Below, piece by piece: positions 29,761 to 51,044 of a stretch of 56,963 nucleotides of DNA. Made by a program: the position numbers and the translations under genes. Source of the stretch: Oscillospiraceae bacterium (GTDB lineage Bacteria > Bacillota > Clostridia > Oscillospirales > Oscillospiraceae); NCBI GenBank assembly GCA_015068065.1, contig SVLE01000006.1:1-56963 (forward strand). Direction: 5' to 3'. Every line of letters begins with the position of its first letter. Position 1 is the stretch's first letter. Under the pieces are notes generated by a model. The model saw nothing but the letters and a program-made list of their open reading frames with translations, had not been told where the DNA came from and searched no databases.

Positions 29761-29819
29761 TGGCAAATATAAAAATGTTATGGAACTGTAAATTCGAGAT
29801 AAAGATATCATAAATTTTG

Positions 29820-35716: not shown

Positions 35717-35737
35717 CGGGAGAGAGGAGTGCCTGAA

Positions 35738-36424
35738 ATGAAAAAAGTACTTGTTCTGGAGGATGAGGAAAACATCCGCAGTTTTGTGGTGATCAACCTG
35801 AAACGGGCGGGTTACGAGACCATTGAGGCCGCCACCGGTGAGGAGGCACTGACCCAACTGAAGAATAACCCCGGTATCAAGGTGGCACTGCTGGACGTGA
35901 TGCTGCCGGATATTGACGGTTTTGAAGTTTGCCGTCGGATCCGGGTGAATGACAACAAAATCGGAATTATCATGCTGACTGCCCGCACGCAGGAGATGGA
36001 CAAGGTGACCGGACTGATGACCGGGGCGGACGACTATGTGACCAAGCCGTTCTCGCCGGCGGAGCTCACCGCCCGAGTGGACGCCCTGTTCCGCCGCACG
36101 GGCAGCGAGCCGTCGCTGGAGCCGGGTGAGTTGTATCAGCCGCCCTTCCTGCTTAATACCCGCAACCGCACGCTGGAAAAGAATGGGCAGCGGATCAAGC
36201 TGACACAGGTAGAGTACGGCATTGTAAAGCTGTTCATGGAAAATCACGGCAAGGCTTTGTCCCGAGAAGAAATTCTGGATGCGGTATGGGGCAGAGATTA
36301 TTTCGGCGAGCTGAAGATCGTGGATGTGAATATCCGCCGTCTGCGCATCAAAATCGAGGATGATGCCCAGAACCCGGCCTTTATCACCACCGTGTGGGGC
36401 TATGGATACAAGTGGGGAGCGTAA
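35738..36424 (+). CDS. OmpR/PhoB-family response regulator
   Basis: 228 residues from ATG 35738, 8 bases after AGAGGAG; GTG 35729 overlaps the site. Receiver domain with acidic pocket E8-D9, phosphoacceptor D53 (ALLDVMLPD), the Thr switch in MLTART-like IIMLTARTQ, and K in VTKPFSPAEL. The C-terminal winged helix (LTQVEYGIVKLFMENHGKALSREEILDAVWG, read in parts, and VDVNIRRLRIKIE) binds DNA. Its partner kinase is the next gene. The target regulon is unknown. No obvious direct repeat suitable for it was noticed in front of the operon. Confidence 0.95.
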   Translation: MKKVLVLEDEENIRSFVVINLKRAGYETIEAATGEEALTQLKNNPGIKVALLDVMLPDIDGFEVCRRIRVNDNKIGIIMLTARTQEMDKVTGLMTGADDYVTKPFSPAELTARVDALFRRTGSEPSLEPGELYQPPFLLNTRNRTLEKNGQRIKLTQVEYGIVKLFMENHGKALSREEILDAVWGRDYFGELKIVDVNIRRLRIKIEDDAQNPAFITTVWGYGYKWGA

Positions 36425-36453
36425 GTCTTTGAGCCGCTGAGAGCGGGACAATA

Positions 36454-36528
36454 GACTCCGGCGTGGATGGAGGAGTCCGGAACCGGACTAAAAACCAAAT
36501 CGAGGCCCACTGCAGTGGGGGCGATTTG
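36454..36528 (+). promoter_or_regulatory. Overlapping hairpins between response regulator and kinase genes
   Basis: In the 123-base gap, hairpin A pairs GACTCC (36454-36459) with GGAGTC (36472-36477). Hairpin B pairs AGTCCGG (36474-36480) with CCGGACT (36483-36489). They share bases 36474-36477 and cannot both form. Hairpin C pairs CAAATCG (36496-36502) with CGATTTG (36522-36528), enclosing CCCACT/AGTGGG. The kinase ribosome site follows 8 bases later. The structure could tune kinase translation relative to the regulator. Confidence 0.5.
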
Positions 36529-36547
36529 GAGAGGACGAGGTGAGACC

Positions 36548-37975
36548 ATGGCCGCAAAACAAAATAAACAGGACAGCGCCCGAGTGCGGGGCATCCGCCA
36601 GCGTTGGATCGCCAACAGTGTCAGCGTGGTGCTGTTTATGGTGGTGCTGGCTGTGGTGGCATTCTCTCTGGCTATGGCGAGCTATTACTACGATGCTATG
36701 GAAGAGGGGCTAAAAGCCCGTGCCGGCAGTGCAGCCTCCTTTTTCCGGAATTATACGGAGTCGGAGTACCGCAGGACCGCGAAAAACTATGTGGACAACT
36801 TTGGTGAAAAAAGCAAACTGGAGCTGCAGTTCATTGAGCCGGATGGCTCCATCCTCTATTCCAGTTACGGCCTGACTGCCGGAAGCCGTCCGGGAACGGC
36901 AGACATTGAGGGAGCATTTGAAAATGCGGTCATGACCCCATGGCGGGGGCGGGATCCCTCCACGGACGAGCGTATTATGGCGGCCACAGCACCGGTCATC
37001 TATCGTGGAAATCTGGTGGGCGCGGTGCGTGTGGTCACCTCCATGCAGGAGGTTGATCGGCAGCTGCTGCTGGCCTCGGGAACGGTGGCCCTGATCGGTA
37101 TCATTTTGCTGGCCATGCTGTATATCTCCAACCTGTTTTTTGTCCGCTCCATTATCGAGCCGCTGGCGGGCATCACACAGACCACCCGGCGCATTGCAGA
37201 CGGTAGCTACGGTATTCAGCTGGAAAAAACTTATGATGACGAAATCGGTGAACTGACCGATGCCATCAATGACATGTCCCTGAAAATCAGGCAGGCAGAA
37301 AAGGTGCAGACGGAGTTTATTTCCTCCGTCTCCCATGAACTGCGCACCCCTCTTACCGCCATCAACGGCTGGGCAGAGACCATCATGAACGGGGAACTGC
37401 AGGAGCCGGAGGATGTGAAAAAGGGCATGAGCATCATCGTCAGTGAGGCCCGCAGACTGACCAACATGGTGGAAGAGCTGCTGGAATTTTCCCGCATTTC
37501 CGACGGGCGCTTTACGTTGGCAGTAGAGGCACTGGACCTGAAGGCGGAACTGGAGGACGCGGTGTACACCTACCGTGAGTTCTTCCGTCGGGACGGGATC
37601 GCCCTGAACTATTACGACTGCCCGGAGGATATGCTCCCCGTGATCGGTGACCCGGAGCGACTGCGGCAGGTGTTCTGCAATCTGCTGGACAACGCGGCCA
37701 AACACGGCGGTGCGGGCAAGCGCATTGACGTGACCATCCGTCAGGATGAGACCGATGCTATCATCGCCATCCGGGACTACGGCCCCGGTGTGCCGGAGGA
37801 TGAACTGCCCTTTATCAAAAATAAGTTTTACAAGGGCAGTTCCAAAGCCAGAGGCAGTGGCATCGGCCTTGCAGTGTGCGAAGAGATTATTTCGCGCCAT
37901 GAGGGTGAACTGCTTCTGGACAATGCCCCCGAGGGGGGCTGTCGGGTGACCATTCGACTGCCAATTGGAACATAA
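36548..37975 (+). CDS. Membrane sensor histidine kinase
   Basis: 475 residues from ATG 36548, 7 bases after GAGG; the earlier in-frame ATG 36467 would read through the hairpins and lacks a site. Two membrane segments (about 22-45, SVVLFMVVLAVVAFSLAMA, and about 180-200, VALIGIILLAMLYISNLF) enclose an about 135-residue extracellular sensor. HAMP follows (RSIIEPLAGITQTTRRIADG). The HisKA domain has the phosphoacceptor H263 in SSVSHELRTPLT. HATPase has N box DNAAKHG, G1 RDYGPGV, F box, and G2 GSGIGLAV. It is the cognate kinase of the upstream regulator and may sense through the lipoprotein. The topology is that of PhoR/WalK-like envelope sensors. Confidence 0.95.
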   Translation: MAAKQNKQDSARVRGIRQRWIANSVSVVLFMVVLAVVAFSLAMASYYYDAMEEGLKARAGSAASFFRNYTESEYRRTAKNYVDNFGEKSKLELQFIEPDGSILYSSYGLTAGSRPGTADIEGAFENAVMTPWRGRDPSTDERIMAATAPVIYRGNLVGAVRVVTSMQEVDRQLLLASGTVALIGIILLAMLYISNLFFVRSIIEPLAGITQTTRRIADGSYGIQLEKTYDDEIGELTDAINDMSLKIRQAEKVQTEFISSVSHELRTPLTAINGWAETIMNGELQEPEDVKKGMSIIVSEARRLTNMVEELLEFSRISDGRFTLAVEALDLKAELEDAVYTYREFFRRDGIALNYYDCPEDMLPVIGDPERLRQVFCNLLDNAAKHGGAGKRIDVTIRQDETDAIIAIRDYGPGVPEDELPFIKNKFYKGSSKARGSGIGLAVCEEIISRHEGELLLDNAPEGGCRVTIRLPIGT

Positions 37976-39928: not shown

Positions 39929-40017
39929 AGCCCGCGTTATCGGACTTTGTGTTTGGGATAATGGTATCGTGAATAAGAGAAAGACCGGCATTTCACCGGC
40001 CTGAAAGGATGAAAGAT

Positions 40018-41127
40018 ATGGCAACCAAAAAGCCTATGGTAGAGAGCGCGACTCCCGCATCTGACAAGAAGAAGGCCCTTGAGACCGCCATGGCTCAGAT
40101 CGAGCGCACTTACGGCAAGGGCTCCATCATGCGTCTGGGTGAGAATGTGGATGCTATGGTGGAGGCGGTGCCCACCGGTTCTTTGTCTCTGGATTTGTCT
40201 CTGGGTATTGGCGGACTGCCCAAGGGCCGCATCATCGAGATCTACGGGCCGGAATCCTCCGGTAAGACCACCCTGGCCCTGCACGTGGTGGCCGAGGCCC
40301 AGAAGCTGGGCGGCGAGGTGGCCTTTATTGACGCCGAGCATGCTCTGGATCCCACCTACGCCCGGGCGCTGGGCGTGGACATTGACTCCATGCTGATTGC
40401 TCAGCCCGATACCGGCGAGCAGGGTCTGGAAATCTGCGAAGCGTTGGTGCGCTCCGGTGCCATCGACGTAGTGGTGGTGGACTCTGTGGCCGCCCTGACC
40501 CCCCGTGCGGAAATCGAGGGCGACATGGGCGACAGTCATGTGGGTCTGCTGGCCCGACTGATGAGTCAGGCCCTGCGTAAGCTGGCCGGCTCCATCGCCA
40601 AAACTAACTGCATTGTCATCTTCATTAACCAGCTGCGAGAAAAGGTGGGCGTCATGTACGGCAATCCCGAGGTGACCACCGGCGGCCGAGCGCTGAAGTT
40701 CTATTCCTCCGTGCGTATCGACGTGCGCCGGGTGGAGGCCCTGAAGAATGGGTCCGAAATCATCGGCAACCGCACCCGCGCCAAAATTGTCAAGAACAAG
40801 GTGGCCCCTCCCTTCCGCGAGGCGGAGTTCGACATTATGTACGGGGAGGGTATTTCCAAGATCGGTGAGCTGCTGGACATCGGCGTGAAGCTGGATCTGG
40901 TTCAGAAGTCCGGCTCCTGGTTCGCCATGGGCGAGATGCGCTTGGGTCAGGGCCGCGACGCCGCCAAGGAGTTTTTGAAGCAAAATCCTGATGTTGCCGA
41001 GGAACTGGAGGCCAAGATCCGGGCCAACGCCTACAAGCTGATGAGCAAGCAGTCTCAGGCCGCTGCCCGCGCCGCGGGGCGTGCTGTGGACGTATCGGCA
41101 GAGGATTTTGAAGATAAGGACAACTGA
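40018..41127 (+). CDS. recA: Recombinase RecA
   Basis: 369 residues. ATG 40018 is placed 8 bases after AAAGGA; ATG 40009 overlaps that site. RecA coats single-stranded DNA, drives strand exchange and triggers LexA cleavage. Walker A is GPESSGKTT, and the Walker B region is [12 protein letters not shown]. The L1 and L2 loops are [19 protein letters not shown] (in part) and [21 protein letters not shown] (in part). The C-terminal part is complete and no intein is present. It is 2 bases before recX. No LexA-type operator (GAAC-N4-GTTC) was seen in the 89-base upstream gap, so SOS control is not evident. Confidence 0.98.
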
Positions 41128-47882: not shown

Positions 47883-48407
47883 TTATCTTTCATCTGAGAC
47901 CAATTTATGCCTACTAAACGCTTTAATTTCTCCGCAGGCAATTTTTTCTCCTGCATTTCCTGCTGGCTGGGAGGTAAAATCGTCCGGCCCGGAATGTATG
48001 ACAACTGTTTTATGCAGAATCTCACGGACAGAAAATCTATCGGTGAAAAACACCTGGAATGCATACCCGTGATTTCCGAACAGGGGCGGCATATCTCCGG
48101 CATGATTCGGATGAGACTCCCCCTTCGGATTATAATGGGTTAAAGTGTCTGCAAACGGGTCTGTTTCCGTTCCGCTGCACCGGATTCCGCTGTGAATGTG
48201 GAAACCAAAAATTCTATAGGGAGAACCTGGCGTTGCATCGGGGAGTCCCGTCACCTGGGCAGCCACAAGAACACCGCCGTTCATCTGATAAAAACGAATA
48301 CAGCCAGAGATAGATGGATATATGCTGCTTCCGTATACGCTCGCTACCGCCTGAGGTCGTTGCTGCAGTACACGAAGCATCCAGTGAAAAGGGATCTTTC
48401 CAGTCAT
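47883..48407 (-). CDS. Cu/Zn superoxide dismutase family protein without signal peptide
   Basis: 174 residues on the minus strand from ATG 48407, with GAGGAG about 6 bases upstream; two further ATG codons upstream are less well placed. All metal ligands of Cu/Zn-SOD have counterparts: Cu ligands H70 and H72 (GFHIHSG), H91 (THYNP) and H138 (VVIHSGPDD), and Zn ligands H91, H99, H102 and D105 (SHPNHAGD). The disulfide Cys are C77 and C158 (GNAGEKIACG). The active-site Arg near the end is replaced by Lys (K155). The absence of a signal peptide is unusual for this normally exported family. It may be cytoplasmic or spore-associated. Catalysis is therefore plausible but unproven. Confidence 0.85.
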   Translation of the reverse strand: MTGKIPFHWMLRVLQQRPQAVASVYGSSIYPSISGCIRFYQMNGGVLVAAQVTGLPDATPGSPYRIFGFHIHSGIRCSGTETDPFADTLTHYNPKGESHPNHAGDMPPLFGNHGYAFQVFFTDRFSVREILHKTVVIHSGPDDFTSQPAGNAGEKIACGEIKAFSRHKLVSDER

Positions 48408-48440
48408 AGGCATCTCCTCATATCTTGTATGAAACAACAC

Positions 48441-48470
48441 AGTCTATGCAAGAGAGCGTACAAGTGACAA
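48441..48470 (-). promoter_or_regulatory. Predicted promoter for the SOD-like gene
   Basis: On the minus strand TTGTCA (48470-48465), an 18-base spacer and TAGACT (48446-48441), 33 bases before the start at 48407. Confidence 0.55.
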
Positions 48471-48520
48471 CGCTTCGACTCATTGGGGGGCAGGCACTCC
48501 AGGCATGGAAGAATTTACAT

Positions 48521-48549
48521 TTGCAAAATAGTTACAAAATGGTTACAAT
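48521..48549 (+). promoter_or_regulatory. Promoter for the small peptide and LysM-CAP genes
   Basis: TTGCAA (48521-48526), exact 17-base spacer, TACAAT (48544-48549). The peptide start codon is 46 bases downstream. GTTACA appears twice (48531-48536 and 48542-48547 region), possibly a regulator site. Confidence 0.65.
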
Positions 48550-48594
48550 AACAGCTGTCTTCGCGAGACAAATACTTATCAGGAGGTCAGCAAG

Positions 48595-48660
48595 ATGTGT
48601 AACTTTGATTGCAGCGCCATCTGGCAGATTCTCAGCCAGTTGTGCGGTTTCAGTTGCTAA
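48595..48660 (+). CDS. 21-residue cysteine-containing peptide, leader of the LysM-CAP gene
   Basis: ATG 48595, 8 bases after a perfect AGGAGG (48581-48586), ends at TAA 48658-48660. It encodes 21 residues: MCNFDCSAIW, then QILSQLCGFSC. Four Cys are at positions 2, 6, 17 and 21, in a nearly symmetrical layout, with a hydrophobic amphipathic centre. No other candidate start with as good a site is nearby. A promoter lies just upstream, and a terminator-like hairpin just after. I do not recognise it. It could be a structural spore-coat or envelope peptide cross-linked by disulfides, a short signalling or antimicrobial peptide, or a regulatory leader peptide whose translation affects the hairpin at 48672-48699. 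No modification enzyme gene is adjacent. Confidence 0.65.
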   Translation: MCNFDCSAIWQILSQLCGFSC

Positions 48661-48671
48661 TTCACTGTTCT

Positions 48672-48703
48672 GCGGTTCCGCGAAGGCGGAATCGCTTTTC
48701 TGT
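48672..48703 (+). terminator. Terminator-like hairpin between the small peptide gene and the LysM-CAP gene
   Basis: GCGGTTCCGC (48672-48681) and GCGGAATCGC (48686-48695) with one wobble around GAAG, followed by TTTTCTGTTTC. It ends only 4 bases before the AAGGAGG site of the LysM-CAP gene. It could attenuate transcription, set the ratio of the two products, or stabilise the peptide mRNA. Confidence 0.65.
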
Positions 48704-48719
48704 TTCAAGGAGGTCTGAT

Positions 48720-49325
48720 ATGAAAAAAACCGTTTCTGTTTGCATGGCGTTGCTCTTGCTTTTTGCGATTCCCTTGTCGGCATCTGCCGCCAAATTGTCC
48801 CATACCGTAGTGAAGGGCGACACCCTGTGGAAAATCGCATCCAAATATCAAGTTGGAACCAGCGAAGTTATCAGCGCAAATCCTCAGATTTCCAACCCGA
48901 ATCTGATTTATCCGGGCCAGGTCCTTACCATCCCTCGGGAGAATTCTTCTGTTTTGGCGTTTGAAAAAGAGGTCATTCGTCTGGTGAATGAAGAACGCGC
49001 AAAAAACGGCCTGAAAGCTCTGGCTGCAAACTGGGAACTCTCTCGCGTGGCCCGCTACAAGTCACAGGATATGGTAGACAACCGTTATTTCTCCCATACC
49101 AGTCCTACCTACGGAACCCCGTTCCAGATGATCAAAGCCTTTGGCCTGACCTATCGTACCGCCGGCGAAAATATTGCCTATGGTCAGAGAACACCTCAGG
49201 CCGTGGTAAGCGCCTGGATGAACTCCAGTGGACACCGCGCCAATATCCTGCATGCGTCCTATACGCAAATTGGTGTGGGGTATGTATCAAGTGGCCATTA
49301 CTGGACGCAGATGTTCATCGGTTGA
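48720..49325 (+). CDS. Secreted LysM-CAP domain protein (SafA/YkwD-like)
   Basis: 201 residues from ATG 48720, 6 bases after AAGGAGG. Signal peptide of 23-24 residues (MKKTVSVCMALLLLFAIPLS then ASA). One LysM domain (about 27-70, HTVVKGDTLWKIASKYQV and NPNLIYPGQVLTIP) for binding peptidoglycan glycan chains. Then a CAP/SCP domain (about 76-201) with the conserved EEVIRLVNEERA-like EKEVIRLVNEERA, SHTSPTYGTPFQM, AGENIAYG and WMNSSGHRANIL. In spore formers such proteins (SafA, YkwD types) sit in the coat or cortex region. It is expressed downstream of the 21-residue peptide gene through a terminator-like hairpin. Confidence 0.92.
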   Translation: MKKTVSVCMALLLLFAIPLSASAAKLSHTVVKGDTLWKIASKYQVGTSEVISANPQISNPNLIYPGQVLTIPRENSSVLAFEKEVIRLVNEERAKNGLKALAANWELSRVARYKSQDMVDNRYFSHTSPTYGTPFQMIKAFGLTYRTAGENIAYGQRTPQAVVSAWMNSSGHRANILHASYTQIGVGYVSSGHYWTQMFIG

Positions 49326-49640
49326 TCTACACACAGTTGGAATTTGGTCTAATTGCACCATCTAAGATAAAAGCACCTTACTTACCGCTTACAAACCATT
49401 GATTTTACTGGGTTTTACCAGATTCTTTAATGGCACTCAGAACAAGTCGCTGTGGACGACATATCGTTCGCAGCGACTTGCTTTATGGCTGAACATGTCT
49501 ATACCGGAGAAACCTCAAAACGGGTTTGTTGAAAATTGTGTGTGTTTATATGAATTCTATGAAGCGTTTATTGACTTTTCGCGCGTTTTTGCCTAAACTA
49601 TAAGTAGTAACCCAATGTTCCGAAAAGAAAGAGGGATTTT
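49326..49640. other. 315-base gap with one long hairpin, no gene seen
   Basis: After the LysM-CAP stop the sequence turns AT-rich. The only strong structure is CAAGTCGCTG (49443-49452) with CAGCGACTTG (49471-49480), a perfect 10-bp stem with an 18-base loop that itself has ACGA/TCGT. An open frame at 49399-49596 has no ribosome site or recognisable product. The right edge holds the permease promoter. Confidence 0.6.
49571..49599 (+). promoter_or_regulatory. Predicted promoter for the APC permease gene
   Basis: TTGACT (49571-49576), 17-base spacer, TAAACT (49594-49599), 42 bases before the start at 49641. Confidence 0.6.
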
Positions 49641-51044
49641 ATGAGCAACAAACTGGAGCGTAAATACGGTCTGTTTACCGCCATCTGCATGGTGGTAGGT
49701 ATTGTGATTGGTTCGGGTGTCTTCTTTAAGGCACAGACCATCCTGCAGAAGACCGGCGGCAACACTTCTTTGGGTATCATCGCGTGGATCATCGGCGGTG
49801 CCATCATGCTGTCCTGCCTGCTGGCTTTTGCCTTCATGGGGCAGAAGTACGAGCGCGTCAATGGCATTGTGGACTATGCCGAAGCGACCATGGGTCCCCG
49901 CTATGCCTACTACATGGGCTGGTTTGCCGCGACAATCTACTTCCCCGGCATGACCTCCGCTCTGGCGTGGCTGTCCGCCCGCTATACGCTGGTCTTTATC
50001 ACTTCCGTCAACCCTGACTTCCCTATGGCCATCCCTGTGGAGCAGGGTGGCTGTGTTGTGGGCCCCGAGTGTATGGCGTTGACTGTGCTGTTCATGGCGG
50101 GTGCCTATGTGCTCAACGCTCTGTCCCCCAGGCTGGCCGGTAAGTTCCAGACCAGCACCACTGTCATCAAACTGATCCCCCTGCTGCTGATGGGCGTCAT
50201 CGGCATCATCTACGGCCTGAACCACGGCATGCTGCAGACCAATCTGACCACCACTGTGATTCCTGCAGCCGAGTTGACCACCAACCCTCTGTTCGCCGCC
50301 GTGTGCGCCACCGCCTTTGCCTATGAGGGCTGGATCATCGCCACCTCCATCAACTCTGAGATCAAGGATTCCAAGAAGAACCTGCCCAAGGCTCTGATTT
50401 TGGGCGGCCTGATCATCATCGCCGTCTACATCCTCTACTTTGTGGGCGTGGCCGGCGGAGCCGGTGCCAAGGACCTGATGGATACCGGTGCCAACGTGGC
50501 GTTCAATAACGTGTTCGGCCCTGTGCTGGGCAACATTCTCAACCTGTTCGTGGCTATCTCCTGCATGGGCACCCTGAACGGCCTGATGCTGGGCTGTTGC
50601 CGCTGCATGTATTCTCTGGCCGAGCGCGGCCGCGGCCCCAAGCCCGAGATGTTTGCTCAGGTGGATAAGACCACCAATATGCCCAACAACTCCGCTGTGG
50701 TTGCTCTGCTGGTCACTGCTGTGTGGTTTGTGTACTTCTACCTGACTAATCTGGCCGCCATCTGGGGTCCCAAGGCACCCTTCGTGTTTGACTCCACGGA
50801 GCTGCCCATTATCACCATCTATCTCATGTACATCCCCATCTTCATCCAGTGGATGCGCAAGGAGAAGGATCAGAATGCGGTGCGTCGCTTTATCGTTCCC
50901 GGCCTGGCTCTGATCGGCAGCGCCTTCATGGTGCTGGCCTGTATCCTGGGTCATGGCATGGCCTGCTTCTGGTACATGATCGTCTTCACTGTGATGATGG
51001 TCATTGGTGGGCTGATTGATGCTTCCCGCAAGAAGAACGCATAA
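49641..51044 (+). CDS. APC-family amino acid permease
   Basis: 467 residues, ATG 49641 after GAAAGAGGG. Twelve membrane segments can be counted; the first is the APC hallmark GLFTAICMVVGIVIGSGVFF, with GSGVF forming the unwound substrate-binding helix. WMRKEKDQ near the end precedes the last helices. It takes up amino acids by proton or sodium coupling, or exchange; the specific substrate cannot be set. It stands alone and is followed by a strong terminator shared with the next, converging gene. Confidence 0.92.
   Translation: MSNKLERKYGLFTAICMVVGIVIGSGVFFKAQTILQKTGGNTSLGIIAWIIGGAIMLSCLLAFAFMGQKYERVNGIVDYAEATMGPRYAYYMGWFAATIYFPGMTSALAWLSARYTLVFITSVNPDFPMAIPVEQGGCVVGPECMALTVLFMAGAYVLNALSPRLAGKFQTSTTVIKLIPLLLMGVIGIIYGLNHGMLQTNLTTTVIPAAELTTNPLFAAVCATAFAYEGWIIATSINSEIKDSKKNLPKALILGGLIIIAVYILYFVGVAGGAGAKDLMDTGANVAFNNVFGPVLGNILNLFVAISCMGTLNGLMLGCCRCMYSLAERGRGPKPEMFAQVDKTTNMPNNSAVVALLVTAVWFVYFYLTNLAAIWGPKAPFVFDSTELPIITIYLMYIPIFIQWMRKEKDQNAVRRFIVPGLALIGSAFMVLACILGHGMACFWYMIVFTVMMVIGGLIDASRKKNA

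What the first reader, a model, noticed from the sequence alone, without database searches (positions are those of the whole stretch)
48521..49325. Promoter, 21-residue Cys peptide, terminator-like hairpin and LysM-CAP gene in one unit
A TTGCAA-17-TACAAT promoter is followed by a perfect AGGAGG and a 22-codon gene with four Cys (positions 2, 6, 17, 21). A 10-bp hairpin with T-rich tail then ends 4 bases before the AAGGAGG of a secreted LysM-CAP gene. The layout looks like attenuation or a set ratio between a disulfide-prone peptide and a wall or spore protein. I know of no described system with this layout. The function is inference.
Basis: partly seen in the sequence, partly recalled or inferred. 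Interest (0 to 1): 0.75.

Follow-up and report, generated by a model that had tools for sequence, protein, structure and literature searches.

The report
Tiny cysteine peptide in wall-enzyme regulon
A conserved 21-residue, cysteine-rich peptide gene, absent from the protein-family catalogues searched here, shares one promoter switch with cell-wall enzymes of gut bacteria; usually it stands alone, but here it sits in front of one of those wall proteins.

Summary
Relatives of MCNFDCSAIWQILSQLCGFSC were accepted in 28 of 400 genomes of the same family; 35 loci were studied. The "one unit" reading holds only in part: 24 of 35 loci have no CAP gene within 400 nt downstream; 11 lie in front of LysM-CAP. 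The promoter contains a 30-bp operator-promoter, TTTG-N7-GTTACA-N5-GTTACA-N-T. In 400 genomes it has 27 exact matches, all 27 in front of the peptide, a CAP protein, or both; the reversed pattern has none. GTTACA-N5-GTTACA alone gives 36 sites in 10 genomes; 31 precede the peptide, CAP, or loci of SleB-like or NlpC/P60 wall hydrolases. It overlaps the -10 box and reads TGTAAC-N5-TGTAAC on the other strand, matching the published WalR consensus. Best reading: an unrecognised micropeptide belonging to a WalR-like wall-hydrolase regulon. In the window, LysM-CAP probably depends on terminator read-through, giving excess peptide. Attenuation by alternative folding is not supported. What the peptide does (trans-acting amphipathic thiol/metal peptide favoured) is inference; no expression data were available.

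The parts
48513..48525 (+). Conserved box around -35 (ATTTACATTTGCA here; family form ATTRCATTTGMA)
   Evidence: ATTRCATTTGMA at <=2 mismatches upstream of 30 of 35 peptide loci; 20 of 700 shuffled upstream stretches
48520..48549 (+). Operator-promoter TTTG-N7-GTTACA-N5-GTTACA-N-T: -35 TTGCAA 48521-48526, -10 TACAAT 48544-48549
   Evidence: One match in the window, 0 in 100 shuffles; 27 exact matches in 400 genomes, all 27 before peptide and/or CAP genes, reversed control 0
48531..48547 (-). WalR-like site TGTAAC-N5-TGTAAC (GTTACA-N5-GTTACA on +), overlapping the -10
   Evidence: consensus TGTWAH-N5-TGTWAH as quoted in PMC9210968 (passages seen); 36 sites in 10 genomes, reversed control 0
48556..48570 (+). 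Dyad TGTCTTCGCGAGACA at the expected transcript start; its UCUUC could also pair with the SD
   Evidence: TGTCYTCGMGAGRC at <=3 mismatches in 23 of 35 peptide loci, 10 of 700 shuffles; aligned; structure evidence weak
48581..48586 (+). Shine-Dalgarno AGGAGG of the peptide gene
   Evidence: Sequence
48595..48660 (+). Peptide gene, 21 aa: MCNFDCSAIWQILSQLCGFSC
   Evidence: Family of 35 loci; coding-type conservation; no Pfam or NCBIfam family at E <= 1
48672..48705 (+). Terminator-like hairpin (48672-48695) and T-rich tail (48696-48705)
   Evidence: such hairpins follow 29 of 35 peptide genes
48707..48713 (+). Shine-Dalgarno AAGGAGG of LysM-CAP
   Evidence: Sequence
48720..49325 (+). Secreted LysM-CAP protein, 201 aa
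   Evidence: Pfam CAP E 2.4e-23 and LysM 3e-17; NCBIfam spore_YkwD 199 bits and spore_safA 80 bits, both over cut-off

Best explanation
The 66-bp ORF is an autonomous micropeptide gene. It belongs, with the LysM-CAP gene and SleB-like and NlpC/P60 wall hydrolases, to one regulon whose operator (TGTAAC-N5-TGTAAC read on the minus strand) overlaps the -10 of a sigma-A-type promoter. Shown by sequence comparison: the peptide family, the shared operator-promoter, the operator's overlap with the -10 in all four gene classes, the stand-alone state in most genomes that have it, and the terminator-like hairpin after the peptide. Inferred: an OmpR-family response regulator, most likely the WalR/YycF-like one on contig C59, represses these promoters by covering the -10 and lets them fire together when the wall must be remodelled. 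In the window the peptide unit lies between this promoter and LysM-CAP, which has no promoter of its own that I can see, so most transcripts end at the hairpin and a fraction reads through, giving more peptide than LysM-CAP. The peptide itself most likely acts in trans inside the cell, as a short amphipathic helix flanked by thiols (often C-x3-C ... C-x2-C-x3-C) that binds a metal or a partner protein or membrane of the wall-remodelling programme. That last step is inference only.
For: Peptide family in 28 of 400 genomes of the family: 26 accepted genomes plus G160 and G098 through the operator. Codon pattern of a gene. 24 of 35 loci stand alone. 27 of 27 exact operator-promoter sites in 400 genomes precede CAP (17), peptide (7) or peptide plus LysM-CAP (3). 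The core repeat gives 36 sites in 10 genomes with reversed control 0: 8 peptide, 7 CAP, 9 Hydrolase_2, 7 at a ~97-aa protein followed by SH3-NlpC/P60, 5 other (tallied by hand). The repeat overlaps TACAAT in all 31 of those sites that were printed. C59 regulator: best NCBIfam match YycF, 294 bits. Amphipathic core: in the median peptide 4% of shuffles of a 13-residue core have a hydrophobic moment at least as high (33 of 35 peptides).
Against: No RNA, ribosome or protein data. The YycF score is below that model's cut-off (294 against 340), and no binding was tested. Only 20 of 35 peptide loci keep the double repeat at <=1 mismatch with spacer 4 or 5, so membership of the regulon is not universal. 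The search pattern was drawn from such loci, which favours peptide and CAP hits; of 31 one-mismatch sites 23 precede other genes. 8 of 10 genomes sampled in the window's own genus lack the peptide. Four genomes with the peptide (G329, G036, G094, G375) have no match to LysM-CAP at E <= 1e-3, so the peptide does not need this protein. Nothing measured bears on metal binding or a partner.
Confidence: 0.62

Rival explanations
1. Leader-peptide attenuation: ribosome stalling on the Cys codons (or another signal) during synthesis of the 21-mer decides whether the hairpin terminates before LysM-CAP.
For: Cys-rich short ORF and a terminator-like hairpin in all 11 tandem loci; hairpin directly before the LysM-CAP SD. 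In L041 and L016 the terminator 5' arm pairs with upstream RNA better than with nearly all shuffles, and in L007 the stretch tested as 5' arm is paired with sequence before it in the full-leader MFE.
Against: 24 of 35 loci have no CAP gene within 400 nt. No better-than-shuffled pairing for the terminator 5' arm in 9 of 11 tandem loci; in 10 of 11 the arm opens a hairpin in the full-leader MFE. Conservation covers Asp/Asn, Gln, Leu and Gly positions as well as Cys.
Confidence: 0.1
2. Dual-function small RNA: the peptide transcript (about 150 nt by sequence) also acts as RNA, its UCYUC leader pairing with GGAGG ribosome sites of wall-hydrolase mRNAs (or with its own SD as a switch).
For: TC(C/T)T(C/T) in the leader together with a GGAGG site in 28 of 35 peptide loci, conserved leader motif. 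Flank pairing around the SD slightly better in own than permuted pairs (27 of 2000 by helix length).
Against: Energy versions weak (104 of 1000; 133 of 1000); rows are related, so even these overstate. RNAalifold finds no stable consensus fold. No Rfam match at E <= 1. The ORF is conserved also where the leader motif is not (12 of 35 loci).
Confidence: 0.13
3. The peptide is a leaderless secreted or membrane-active peptide (signal, bacteriocin-like or type I toxin) that happens to share the wall regulon's promoter.
For: Short amphipathic core; shared control with wall enzymes.
Against: Sequence conserved across several genera. Core too short and too polar for a membrane span (inference). An antisense partner, as type I toxins have, was not searched for.
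Confidence: 0.1
4. Neutral layout: the ORF has no function of its own and only marks a 5' region shared by promoter duplication.
For: Patchy distribution: 28 of 400 genomes; 2 of 10 in the window's genus.
Against: Coding-type conservation; start and stop kept in 35 loci; 31 of 35 end in GC or CC plus 0-2 residues, also at loci without the double repeat.
Confidence: 0.05

Closest known systems
WalRK (YycFG) regulon of Bacillota
   Same: Site matches the TGTWAH-N5-TGTWAH consensus (passages of PMC9210968); targets are wall hydrolases, including NlpC/P60, for which that paper reports predicted WalR sites in C. difficile; a YycF-like regulator is in the genome.
   Different: Site overlaps the -10 in all classes printed; a 21-aa Cys peptide and CAP proteins are members; YycF model cut-off not met; regulator not proven.
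YkwD/SafA-type LysM-CAP proteins (TIGR02909, TIGR02899)
   Same: The downstream protein scores above both cut-offs.
   Different: Preceded in 11 loci by the peptide and a terminator-like hairpin; operator links it to other wall hydrolases. A spore role is not shown.
Transcription attenuators with leader peptides (general knowledge, recalled)
   Same: Short ORF, terminator-like hairpin, downstream gene.
   Different: Mostly stand-alone; no general antiterminator; conservation not limited to one codon type.
Dual-function small RNAs such as SR1/SR1P (PMC8501984, start of abstract seen in the listing)
   Same: Short transcript with micro-ORF and terminator; a UCYUC stretch that could pair with SDs.
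   Different: No demonstrated RNA target; the ORF is kept where the leader motif is lost.

Membership tests
WalR regulon | Promoter site TGTWAH-N5-TGTWAH | tested here: met
   TGTAAC-CATTT-TGTAAC on - strand at 48531-48547; the window has one other match to this loose consensus, at 29776 on +
WalR regulon | Co-members are wall-remodelling genes | tested here: met
   31 of 36 sites in 10 genomes precede peptide (8), CAP (7) or wall-hydrolase loci (16)
WalR regulon | A WalR orthologue encoded in the genome | tested here: inconclusive
   L215: YycF best of NCBIfam, 294 bits against cut-off 340; adjacent histidine kinase read
WalR regulon | Regulator binds and controls the promoter | not testable with these tools
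   Needs footprinting or expression data
Attenuator leader peptide | Lies directly upstream of the regulated gene | tested here: not met
   A CAP gene follows in 11 of 35 loci only
Attenuator leader peptide | Competing antiterminator structure | tested here: not met
   Not better than shuffles in 9 of 11 tandem loci; L041 and L016 are exceptions
YkwD/SafA LysM-CAP (downstream gene) | Scores over TIGR02909 and TIGR02899 cut-offs | tested here: met
   199.2 against 171 and 79.9 against 67.85 bits
YkwD/SafA LysM-CAP (downstream gene) | Spore-associated function | not tested
   The names suggest it; nothing here shows it
Dual-function sRNA | Conserved RNA element that pairs with target mRNAs | tested here: inconclusive
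   weak, non-independent signal on the own SD; no target mRNA was tested; no Rfam hit
Any catalogued protein family (peptide) | Match in Pfam or NCBIfam | tested here: not met
   0 families at E <= 1; PHROGs and PADLOC were not searched

The most novel reading that the evidence does not exclude
A previously unrecognised class of sub-25-residue, thiol-bearing trans regulator: made at the same promoter switch as the wall hydrolases, it senses metal or redox state with its CxxxC pairs and feeds back on the WalRK-like kinase or on the enzymes themselves. In the window, tandem fusion with a leaky terminator fixes the ratio of regulator to enzyme.
Probability: 0.22. Interest if true: 0.82.

Novelty: new variant of a known kind. 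Interest (0 to 1): 0.6.

Why it matters
It adds a conserved micropeptide to what looks like the cell-wall hydrolase control circuit of gut bacteria, and it gives a sharp test: one 17-bp operator predicts a set of promoters, some in separate parts of the genome. If the peptide modulates wall enzymes or their kinase, it would be a very small regulator of that kind. It also shows that a lone cysteine-rich ORF before a terminator need not be an attenuator: comparison across genomes separates a leader from an independent gene that merely lies upstream.

Tried and rejected
Attenuation by alternative folding: rejected as the general account, with exceptions L041 and L016 noted. RNA switch sequestering the SD: suggestive in single sequences, weak in permutation tests, no consensus fold; left open. 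PhoP-type box: TT(A/T/C)ACA-N4-6-TT(A/T/C)ACA has no match in the window, so not pursued. Rfam: nothing (window 48000-50000). Response regulator at 35729-36424 in the same window: not the best WalR candidate (YycF model 200 bits, behind RpaB, VanR and PhoB models). The tblastn column was void (wrong option) and was redone. One search listed 46 of 400 genomes at E <= 0.1: I accepted 26 (best hits all at E <= 0.0022); of the other 20 genomes I looked at the contexts of four (L160-L163), where no short ORF of this kind was seen, and dropped all 20 as chance. One search gave 7 of 295 in the order: 4 already accepted in the family, 1 convincing outside it (G558, L219, seen), 2 weak ones (G202, G464) dropped. 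Papers: (the last with 0 papers) showed no description of the peptide in their listings; these cover only open-licence full texts, and apart from passages of PMC9210968 no paper was opened.

Full report
1. What is there. The ORF 48595-48660 encodes MCNFDCSAIWQILSQLCGFSC behind AGGAGG. A 10-bp hairpin with a T-rich tail follows, and LysM-CAP starts at 48720. LysM-CAP scores over the NCBIfam cut-offs of spore_YkwD and spore_safA and matches Pfam LysM and CAP. The named records with the most similar LysM-CAP are an Oscillibacter sp. MAG (84%) and other Oscillospiraceae or Clostridia MAGs.

2. The peptide is a gene family. A search of 400 genomes of the same family with the peptide and then with an alignment of 23 relatives gave 26 accepted genomes; two more came through the operator (G160, G098), making 28 of 400. 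Eight further loci came from a search with LysM-CAP, not with the peptide. The working set is 35 loci: 27 from the 400 genomes plus these 8, with G210 represented by its named copy L045. The consensus of 25 peptides is MCxNFDCxxLWQxLCQLFGxGC. Over 49 same-length pairs, pN is 0.16 and pS 0.55, ratio 0.30. This is biased, because most members were found by amino-acid similarity and pairs were limited to at least 55% identity. Nine loci (the window and the eight found through LysM-CAP) give codon-position identities 0.74, 0.79 and 0.65 over 36 pairs, the order expected of coding sequence, though the contrast is modest. One convincing copy lies outside the family (G558, MCKFNCNFIWQILSQLCGFGC), in a search of 295 genomes of the order.

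3. Mostly not a leader. A CAP gene follows within 400 nt in 11 of 35 loci and in none of the other 24 (for L158 only 216 nt were available). Eight of the 11 were fetched through LysM-CAP; within the 28 genomes of the sample, 4 are tandem (G000, G337, G274, G210) and 24 are not. A terminator-like hairpin follows the peptide in 29 of 35 loci, including all 11 tandem ones, against 3 of 175 mononucleotide-shuffled stretches. Four of the genomes with the peptide that were handed to one search have no match to LysM-CAP at E <= 1e-3 (G329, only 73% complete; G036, G094, G375).

4. The promoter is the key. The pattern TTTG-N7-GTTACA-N5-GTTACA-N-T was sought in 400 genomes with up to one mismatch: 58 sites in 50 genomes, reversed-pattern control 0. 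Of 27 exact sites, 17 precede a CAP gene, 7 the peptide and 3 the peptide followed by LysM-CAP: 27 of 27. Of 31 one-mismatch sites, 4 precede CAP, 4 the peptide and 23 other genes (8 of these are the NlpC/P60 locus of the window's genus). In G039, G074 and G078 the peptide and CAP genes lie apart, each with an exact site; in G075 and G151 the CAP site is exact and the peptide site has one mismatch. So the two genes are joined by control, not only by neighbourhood. A caution: the pattern was written from such loci.

5. A wider regulon. GTTACA-N5-GTTACA alone has 36 exact sites in 10 genomes, reversed control 0. Downstream genes fall into: peptide 8, CAP 7, secreted Cu_amine_oxidN1 + Hydrolase_2 (SleB-like) 9, a ~97-aa protein followed by SH3-NlpC/P60 7, other 5. 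Pfam supports all 9 Hydrolase_2 proteins and 6 of the 7 NlpC/P60 proteins; the seventh (L252) was judged by eye. In all 31 sites printed the repeat overlaps TACAAT: judged by eye from the -35, its second half serves as -10 in peptide and CAP promoters and its first half in the two hydrolase classes (in a few sites either half could serve). Read on the other strand it is TGTAAC-N5-TGTAAC, which fits the WalR consensus TGTWAH-N5-TGTWAH as quoted in PMC9210968 (passages only); that paper also reports an NlpC/P60 gene with predicted WalR sites repressed under its Wal-ON condition. The window's genome has four regulators with a Trans_reg_C domain. The one on C59 has YycF as best NCBIfam model, 294 bits against a cut-off of 340; among solved structures its best match is RegX3, with B. 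subtilis PhoP and YycF receivers close. A WalR-like repressor covering the -10 is thus the best inference, not a result.

6. The leader. A dyad TGTCYTCGMGAGRC lies at the expected transcript start in 23 of 35 peptide loci at <=3 mismatches (10 of 700 shuffles), and variants such as CCTTGCAAGG stand in some CAP leaders. It could be a 5'-end hairpin, a DNA site, or a stretch that pairs with the SD. Tests were weak, so I draw no conclusion.

7. How it works. Shown: conserved gene, own promoter, shared operator, terminator-like hairpin. Inferred: co-repression at the -10 and release together with wall hydrolases; in the window, peptide-rich and CAP-poor output by read-through. The peptide's core is amphipathic (median 4% of shuffles reach its moment, 33 of 35 peptides), with 4-6 Cys in 34 of 35 members and 3 in one. 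It has no evident export signal (by eye). I favour an intracellular, metal- or thiol-coordinating helix that acts on a partner or membrane of the wall programme; an RNA function of the same transcript is the main rival.

8. Limits. No expression data. 15 of 35 peptide loci lack the double repeat at <=1 mismatch, though 30 of 35 keep the -35 box. Presence is patchy: 2 of 10 genomes of the window's own genus.

Noticed in passing
L225, L228, L229, L243, L247, L248, L252, just after the operator: A ~97-aa protein (YKGHPLRRKDNLIYYGTMAEKYIIMLQVL...) stands ahead of SH3-NlpC/P60 hydrolases at 7 of 36 operator sites; the one copy tested has no Pfam or NCBIfam match.
   Followed up: partly
CAP proteins in L110, L192, L210, L206: CAP proteins lacking LysM carry an exported Cys-rich N-terminal stretch (such as CEFSLQDFLKNC, CPKCFNFCWNDC) that looks somewhat like the peptide's core; homology untested.
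   Followed up: no
window 35729-37975: OmpR-type response regulator and histidine kinase pair about 2 kb upstream of a RecA ORF (40009-41127, named by eye); a second candidate regulator, not the best WalR match.
   Followed up: partly
L143, L183-L186, L188-L190: In the window's genus an operator variant with a TTTGACA -35 and an added GTTACA repeat precedes the ~97-aa/NlpC-P60 locus in 8 of 10 sampled genomes (not found in G000 or G275).
   Followed up: partly
window 29776 (+): A second match to the loose WalR consensus, TGTTATGGAACTGTAAA; its context was not examined.
   Followed up: no
L219 (G558, another family of the order): A peptide gene, MCKFNCNFIWQILSQLCGFGC, very close to the window's in a genome assigned to another family; transfer or misassignment not tested.
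   Followed up: no
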